NCBI GenBank assembly: GCA_949775045.1 | Contig: OX459105.1 | Coordinates: forward strand, 15,462,227-15,526,226 | DNA length: 64,000 bases | Direction: 5' to 3' | From: Metridium senile | Lineage: Eukaryota > Cnidaria > Anthozoa > Actiniaria > Metridiidae | In this document: in pieces, positions 2,595 to 24,983 of the stretch | Layout of the letters: the number at the start of each line of letters is the position of its first letter | How positions within the stretch are numbered: position 1 is the stretch's first letter | Program-made: the position numbers and the translations under genes | Notes under the pieces: model-generated | Told to the model about the DNA's origin: nothing | The model's database searches: none | What the model saw: only the letters and a program-made list of their open reading frames with translations

Positions 2595-2658
2595 ATGGCG
2601 ACGAATTGTGCTGCCTTCTACTTTGTTATCCTCACTTACTTGTTTACATACTCATACG
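2595..2658 (+). CDS. RTK exon 1: start codon and signal peptide
   Basis: ATG at 2595 opens 21 codons of mostly hydrophobic residues (AAFYFVILTYLF core) and ends in phase 1 before GTAAGTAAG. Exon 2 begins in the matching phase. This is a typical stand-alone signal-peptide exon. It was chosen as the start because the first domain in exon 2 begins at once and no start codon precedes it in exon 2. Confidence 0.75.

Positions 2659-24983: not shown

What the first reader, a model, noticed from the sequence alone, without database searches (positions are those of the whole stretch)
2595..24983. RTK with an unusual IgGFc-binding/MopE/HYR/EGF/Ig/SEA/FN3 ectodomain
Seen: 21 exons join in phase into one 1560-residue chain. 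Known RTK classes do not, to my knowledge, carry an IgGFc-binding-like domain or MopE repeats. These modules are typical of mucus or matrix proteins and of bacterial-style Ca-binding repeats, so the receptor may sense mucus, matrix or microbes. That role is inference.
Basis: partly seen in the sequence, partly recalled or inferred. Interest (0 to 1): 0.75.

Follow-up and report, generated by a model that had tools for sequence, protein, structure and literature searches.

The report
Sea-anemone/coral receptor kinase with mucus-like ectodomain
This looks like one gene for a cell-surface tyrosine-kinase receptor whose outer part is built from mucus- and matrix-type modules; stony corals and a sea anemone carry the same kind of receptor, so it is a real but apparently undescribed receptor family.

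Summary
I rebuilt 21 exons (2595-24983) giving 1560 residues without a stop. It is not an exon-chaining accident: proteins with the same modules in the same order occur in Oculina, Stylophora, Montipora, Acropora millepora, A. cervicornis and one unnamed source, and a partial one in the anemone Actinostola. The kinase is nearest to FGFR/RET among solved structures. Three things are added. (1) A second, diverged SEA domain lies between the HYR-like and EGF modules. (2) The membrane-proximal SEA keeps a G-S-V cleavage-type motif in 11 of 11 rows, so a two-piece, separable receptor is likely. (3) This copy has HRDLAARI where 8 of 8 relatives with that segment have HRDLAARN, so it may be catalytically weak. 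The borders of all six ectodomain modules are phase-1 introns, as in exon shuffling. An Oculina relative carries the same stalk under a different head. Nine literature searches aimed at it found no description. Ligand and function are unknown; mucus or microbe sensing remains inference. Verdict: a new RTK family of hexacorals, a new variant of a known kind.

The parts
2595..2658 (+). exon 1: start codon and hydrophobic leader (signal-peptide-like), aa 1-22
   Evidence: phase 1 exit, GT donor; hydropathy; no homology hit
6987..9320 (+). reverse-transcriptase ORF (777 aa) inside intron 1; not part of the receptor
   Evidence: RVT_1 1.5e-30
9730..11646 (+). exon 2, one 1917-nt exon with phase 1 on both sides: IgGFc_binding head (aa 24-445), MopE-type acidic motif (aa about 456-489), two HYR-like repeats (aa 491-660)
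11936..12695 (+). exons 3-5 (11936-12042, 12367-12434, 12541-12695): diverged SEA domain 'SEA-a', aa 661-770; the GSV/GSI motif of the coral-type rows is absent here
   Evidence: SEA E 0.0041, below cut-off; profile match to SEA-b 97.5%; motif row; alternative acceptor 12561
13259..13384 (+). exon 6: EGF domain, aa 771-813
   Evidence: EGF_3 9.4e-11, EGF_CA 1.9e-08
13940..14728 (+). exons 7-8 (13940-14037, 14503-14728): Ig I-set domain, aa 814-921
   Evidence: I-set 1.3e-18
15184..16228 (+). exons 9-11 (15184-15296, 15741-15799, 16068-16228): membrane-proximal SEA domain 'SEA-b', aa 922-1032; G980-S981 candidate cleavage bond at 16072-16077
   Evidence: SEA 9.7e-13
16405..16707 (+). exon 12: fibronectin type III domain, aa 1033-1132
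   Evidence: fn3 5.9e-14
17280..17452 (+). exon 13: transmembrane helix (strongest hydropathy window, aa 1144-1162) and basic run after it
17769..18081 (+). exon 14: juxtamembrane segment, Gly loop (GEGQFG), AVK lysine
18459..19088 (+). exons 15-16 (18459-18569, 18910-19088): kinase from the alpha-C Glu to just before the catalytic loop
19177..19299 (+). exon 17: catalytic loop HRDLAARI (I1401, codon 19204-19206) and DFG
19865..23167 (+). exons 18-20 (19865-19935, 22486-22526, 22971-23167): rest of kinase C-lobe
24906..24983 (+). exon 21: short tail with YVNI (Y1537, codon 24909-24911) and stop codon

Best explanation
One open gene encodes a single-pass receptor tyrosine kinase of a family shared by hexacorals (stony corals and at least one sea anemone). 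The window's species may be on the anemone side (one tree; weak). Order: leader, IgGFc-binding-type head, MopE-type motif, two HYR-like repeats, SEA-a, EGF, Ig, SEA-b, FN3, TM, kinase, short YxN tail. Shown by sequence: the order, its conservation, module borders at phase-1 introns, the conserved G-S-V motif of SEA-b, and the replaced catalytic-loop Asn in this copy. Inferred mechanism: SEA-b cuts itself between G980 and S981 during folding, leaving a large outer head held non-covalently on an FN3-TM-kinase stump. Binding of the head to something in mucus, matrix or on microbes, or pulling on it, changes or releases the head and so changes kinase clustering; in relatives with HRDLAARN the kinase autophosphorylates and the tail YxN recruits a GRB2-type adaptor towards Ras/MAPK. 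In this copy HRDLAARI should weaken catalysis, so it may act as a partner or decoy, unless the codon is an assembly error.
For: Gene model. Colinear relatives. Domains. Kinase class: (FGFR3 265.6 bits, RET 254.8; the top row, an EGFR chain at 316.6, holds two copies at 157.2 each). SEA-b: 11 of 11 rows have GSVK; its profile matches adhesion GPCR F1 at 7.8e-9, and the 57-residue chain 8hc0_B ends at the aligned 'NG', as a cleaved chain would. GSVVV/GSIVA SEA motifs are said to self-cleave in GPR110/GPR116, and cleaved SEA domains to stay together until force acts (PMC6954182, passages). Tail YxN in 6 of 7 IgGFc-type rows with a complete tail, window included. Phase-1 borders for 6 of 6 ectodomain modules. 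The window's kinase branch (0.24) is no longer than Actinostola's (0.29). GRB2 recognition of pYxN and the meaning of phase-1 borders are recalled, not from a call.
Against: No transcript, protein or assay. SEA-b here reads GSVKA, not GSVVV; cleavage was not tested. SEA-a in the window is only 15-20% identical to the coral-type rows and below Pfam's cut-off; a 1495-aa splice alternative would lose its first half. I1401 argues against ordinary RTK signalling by this copy. P0084 lacks the tail tyrosine. The ligand is unknown. The relatives are database gene models, and at least three of the ten compared are truncated or odd (P0001, P0081, P0086).
Confidence: 0.66

Rival explanations
1. Two neighbouring genes were joined: a secreted IgGFc-HYR protein (exons 1-2, perhaps 1-5) and a separate EGF-Ig-SEA-FN3 receptor kinase.
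For: Exons 1 and 3-5 have no direct homology hit; the frame of exon 2 runs on to a stop at 11846, so an unspliced secreted form is possible; an IgGFc-MopE-HYR_4C protein without kinase exists elsewhere (P0037); an Oculina receptor has the EGF-to-TM part without the IgGFc head (P0081).
Against: Models from several genera carry both halves, colinear with the window; all phases fit.
Confidence: 0.08
2. A gene copy that is beginning to decay, shown by the lost catalytic Asn and the eroded SEA-a.
For: HRDLAARI versus HRDLAARN in 8 of 8 relatives with the segment; SEA-a motif absent and low identity.
Against: 4683 nt open with 20 GT-AG introns; kinase branch not long; Gly loop, AVK Lys, alpha-C Glu, HRD and DFG all kept.
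Confidence: 0.12
3. A true pseudokinase receptor that works as a co-receptor or decoy, with no catalytic signalling of its own.
For: Catalytic-loop Asn replaced by Ile; the rest of the kinase conserved.
Against: One assembly only; a single-base difference (ATT where relatives encode Asn) could be an error or a rare allele; the tail YVNI is kept.
Confidence: 0.3
4. The SEA domain is structural only; the receptor is not cleaved and works as an ordinary ligand-dimerised RTK.
For: SEA cleavage is not universal (the furin site in human GPR126 is not conserved in zebrafish, PMC6954182, passages); the motif here is GSVKA.
Against: G-S-V-K is the same in 11 of 11 SEA-b rows although flanking positions vary, including the Fz-kringle receptor of Porites.
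Confidence: 0.3

Closest known systems
Coral receptors without a described function: ACROYT_G043342 (Oculina), 'Fibroblast growth factor receptor 1' (Stylophora), 'Angiopoietin-1 receptor' (Acropora cervicornis), LOC122953369 (A. millepora), Montipora foliosa model
   Same: Same module order and kinase; 59-66% identical in the kinase, 25-62% in the ectodomain modules other than SEA-a
   Different: They keep HRDLAARN and GSV/GSI in SEA-a; the window has HRDLAARI and no such motif in SEA-a
FGF receptors (FGFR1-3) and RET
   Same: Closest single-domain kinases by sequence among solved structures
   Different: Their Ig-only or cadherin-type ectodomains (recalled) lack the IgGFc, MopE, HYR and SEA modules
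Tie receptors
   Same: Also combine Ig, EGF and FN3 (recalled); one coral relative is named angiopoietin-1 receptor in its source
   Different: One EGF, one Ig and one FN3 here, plus IgGFc/HYR/SEA; not compared at kinase level with Tie sequences
Adhesion GPCR F1 (GPR110) and other SEA-domain surface proteins (GPR126, transmembrane mucins)
   Same: SEA domain in the ectodomain; for GPR110 a match through the G-S site
   Different: Kinase instead of 7TM; no mucin-type Pro/Ser/Thr tract (largest 60-aa share 37%)
Porites P0096 (Fz-kringle-FN3-SEA-FN3-TM-kinase) and Oculina P0081 (D8C_UMOD-FN3-FN3-EGF-EGF-Ig-SEA-FN3-TM, model cut short in the kinase)
   Same: Same SEA-FN3-TM-kinase stalk
   Different: Different outer heads, so the head appears exchangeable
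IgGFc-MopE proteins of bacteria and animals (P0034, P0035, P0037, amphioxus P0002)
   Same: IgGFc plus the acidic MopE-type motif; invariant Asp/Asn/Cys/Glu positions in 17 of 17 aligned rows
   Different: No kinase or SEA in their precomputed Pfam lists

Membership tests
Receptor tyrosine kinase | single transmembrane helix between ectodomain and kinase | tested here: met
   one hydropathy window at 3.68, next 1.88 (no dedicated TM predictor)
Receptor tyrosine kinase | complete tyrosine-kinase domain | tested here: met
   PF07714 positions 2-258 of 258, 2.2e-87
Receptor tyrosine kinase | N-terminal signal peptide | tested here: inconclusive
   hydrophobic leader in exon 1; no predictor run
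Active tyrosine kinase | catalytic-loop Asn in HRDLAARN | tested here: not met
   HRDLAARI in the window, HRDLAARN in 8 of 8 relatives with the segment
Active tyrosine kinase | Gly loop, AVK Lys, alpha-C Glu, HRD Asp, DFG Asp | tested here: met
FGFR family | kinase most similar to FGFR | tested here: inconclusive
   best solved single-domain matches are FGFRs, RET close behind (best 60 of 2302 shown); no full RTK tree
FGFR family | ectodomain of Ig domains only (recalled) | tested here: not met
   IgGFc, EGF, SEA, FN3 present, one Ig
Tie family | Ig-EGF(3)-Ig-FN3(3) ectodomain (recalled) | tested here: not met
   one EGF, one Ig, one FN3
Hexacoral IgGFc-SEA RTK family (named here) | IgGFc-HYR-SEA-EGF-Ig-SEA-FN3-TM-kinase in that order | tested here: met
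   HYR and SEA-a by profile comparison, not by Pfam cut-off
Self-cleaving SEA domain | SEA domain with G-S at the cleavage loop | tested here: met
   (by sequence only)
Self-cleaving SEA domain | observed cleavage | not testable with these tools
   needs expression
Transmembrane mucin | Pro/Ser/Thr-rich tract | tested here: not met
   highest 60-aa Pro+Ser+Thr share 0.37, in a window starting at aa 1034 in FN3
IgGFc_binding (Pfam PF17517) | full-length profile match | tested here: met
   7.1e-59, profile 1-297 of 297
IgGFc_binding (Pfam PF17517) | binding of IgG Fc | not testable with these tools
   the name is historical; cnidarians are not known to make IgG (recalled)

The most novel reading that the evidence does not exclude
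Hexacorals own a class of separable receptor kinases: a constant SEA-FN3-TM-kinase stump that cuts itself in the SEA domain, under interchangeable outer heads made of mucus- and pathogen-contact modules (IgGFc-MopE-HYR, uromodulin-type D8C, Fz-kringle), working as mechanical or microbial sensors of the mucus layer, with some members, like this one, turned into kinase-weak decoys or partners.
Probability: 0.2. Interest if true: 0.78.

Novelty: new variant of a known kind. Interest (0 to 1): 0.57.

Why it matters
Receptor kinases are usually classified from vertebrate ectodomains. A conserved family that puts a likely self-cleaving, mucin-type SEA joint and a mucus/bacterial-type head on an FGFR/RET-like kinase would link tyrosine-kinase signalling to the coral and anemone surface layer, where symbionts and pathogens are met. 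It is directly testable in laboratory anemones or corals, and it corrects misleading database names (FGFR1, angiopoietin-1 receptor).

Full report
What was checked. I rebuilt the gene from splice sites and phases. The result is 21 exons between 2595 and 24983, 4683 coding bases, 1560 residues, no internal stop, GT-AG at all 20 introns and matching phases. One alternative is open: a weaker acceptor at 12561 would skip exons 3-4 in frame and give 1495 residues.

Is it more than chance? Yes. The chain or parts were searched against about 5.8 billion proteins in three searches. The first gave 32 rows, the best being a sea anemone protein (Actinostola, P0001, 809 bits) with IgGFc, SEA, fn3 and tyrosine kinase. 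The second (head region, 48 rows) put Oculina patagonica P0033 (1522 aa) on top. The third (stalk region of P0033, 36 rows including itself) gave six proteins whose precomputed Pfam lists hold IgGFc, SEA, EGF, Ig, fn3 and kinase: P0033, P0082 Stylophora, P0083 (unnamed source), P0084 Montipora, P0085 Acropora millepora, P0087 A. cervicornis; I rescanned three of the six (P0033; P0082 and P0085). P0033 aligns with the window from head to tail, including the module between the HYR-like repeats and EGF, and the module-by-module identities of the set are. tblastn of ten relatives hits 12 of 21 exons and nothing outside them. No near-identical protein of the window's own species was listed.

Domains. 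Pfam gives IgGFc_binding, EGF, I-set, SEA, fn3 and PK_Tyr above their cut-offs; MopE and HYR are below. Aligned IgGFc proteins share invariant Asp/Asn/Cys/Glu positions in the MopE segment, 17 of 17 rows. A profile of the family's HYR region hits proteins that carry HYR_4C (P0054, P0037, P0027, P0043), and also P0036 and P0068, which do not list it; no reversed decoy is among the 14 best rows shown for each of three profiles. Residues 661-770 match SEA weakly (E 0.0041, below the cut-off) and match the family's other SEA by profile comparison at 97.5%, against 0.1-0.2% for two controls.

Exon logic. The borders of all six ectodomain modules (IgGFc-MopE-HYR; SEA-a; EGF; Ig; SEA-b; FN3) lie at phase-1 introns. 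Such 1-1 modules are the known signature of exon shuffling (recalled). The head block is a single 1917-nt exon. P0037, from an unnamed source, has IgGFc, MopE-type motif and HYR_4C repeats in the same order without kinase, so the block may have existed before the receptor captured it (inference).

The likely cleavage joint. SEA-b carries G-S-V-K in 11 of 11 rows. Its profile matches adhesion GPCR F1 (7.8e-9), and a deposited 57-residue chain of that receptor ends at the aligned NG, as expected of a cut chain. A paper on GPR126 states that GSVVV/GSIVA motifs in GPR110 and GPR116 lead to self-cleavage and that cleaved SEA domains stay together until force is applied (PMC6954182, passages). Cleavage here is inferred. 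In SEA-a, 7 of 7 coral-type rows with that module (P0033, P0082-P0087; P0083 is from an unnamed source) have GSV or GSI; the window does not.

The kinase. The best solved single-domain matches are FGFR3/1/2, with RET close (best 60 of 2302 shown). Gly loop, AVK, alpha-C Glu, HRD and DFG are intact, but the catalytic-loop Asn is Ile (codon ATT, 19204-19206); 8 of 8 relatives with that segment have Asn; P0081 and P0086 lack the segment. The kinase branch is short (0.24 against 0.29 for Actinostola), so this is not general decay. Either this copy is kinase-weak, or the base is an error or a rare allele. Six of seven IgGFc-type rows with a complete tail, the window included, keep a YxN near the C-terminus (P0084 does not), which would suit GRB2 (recalled).

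Exchangeable heads. Oculina P0081 (ACROYT_G043346, same reported contig length and a locus tag four numbers from P0033) has a uromodulin-type D8C domain and two FN3 in place of the IgGFc head, on a stalk 77% identical to that of P0033 over 86% of the query region; its model is cut inside the kinase. Porites P0096 has Fz, kringle and FN3 outside the same SEA-FN3-TM-kinase arrangement (30% identity over 41% of the query region). This suggests one stalk under several heads; it rests on database gene models.

Origin of the head. In a 39-row tree the nine coral/anemone-type heads (including P0086, whose kinase is a stub) form one clade (100/98), with the window next to Actinostola (97/90) and the coral-type rows together (100/100). 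The four named bacterial rows (Chloroflexota, Verrucomicrobiales, Ostreibacterium, Algoriphagus) all lie in a separate 20-row group (93/85) without a named animal. That speaks against a recent bacterial origin of the receptor's head; an old transfer in either direction is neither shown nor excluded, since inner forks are weak and the root is arbitrary.

Literature. Nine searches of an open-access library aimed at this receptor or its kind showed no such receptor in the listings or passages seen. A kinome-wide study describes ectodomain shuffling in the IRKL and FPVR receptor groups (PMC8662651, passages), so the kind of event is known. Most papers in subscription journals were not searchable.

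Limits. No transcript or assay. The window's own genome could not be searched: seven requests unanswered. Exon 1 and exons 3-5 are the weakest part of the model.

Noticed in passing
window 25722-26753 (-) and 42109-43041 (+): Two closely similar rhodopsin-type GPCR open frames in opposite orientation (7tm_1 1.7e-36 and 3.4e-39), like an inverted duplicate pair downstream of the receptor.
   Followed up: partly
window 6987-9320 (+): A 777-aa open reverse-transcriptase frame (RVT_1 1.5e-30) in the receptor's 7-kb first intron, same strand.
   Followed up: partly
window 725-1078 (+): Open frame ending in a stop, rich in tyrosine motifs (for example YDVLEGPG), perhaps the tail of an upstream signalling receptor gene; no Pfam match.
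   Followed up: no
window 45206-45796 (-) and 52170-52541 (-): Exons resembling an RNA polymerase largest subunit (RNA_pol_Rpb1_5 1.3e-9 for the first; the second by eye only, no Pfam match).
   Followed up: partly
P0086 (Montipora foliosa): Same ectodomain followed by a kinase stub and a Death domain (PF00531, 1.2e-5); either a gene-model fusion or a real swap of the signalling end.
   Followed up: no
P0096 (Porites lutea): Fz-kringle receptor kinase with an added SEA domain carrying NGSVK: a ROR-like outer part (recalled) on a SEA-FN3 stalk.
   Followed up: partly
window about 17465-17737: A hexanucleotide (CAGGCA-type) repeat of about 270 bases starts a few bases after the donor of exon 13, inside intron 13.
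   Followed up: no
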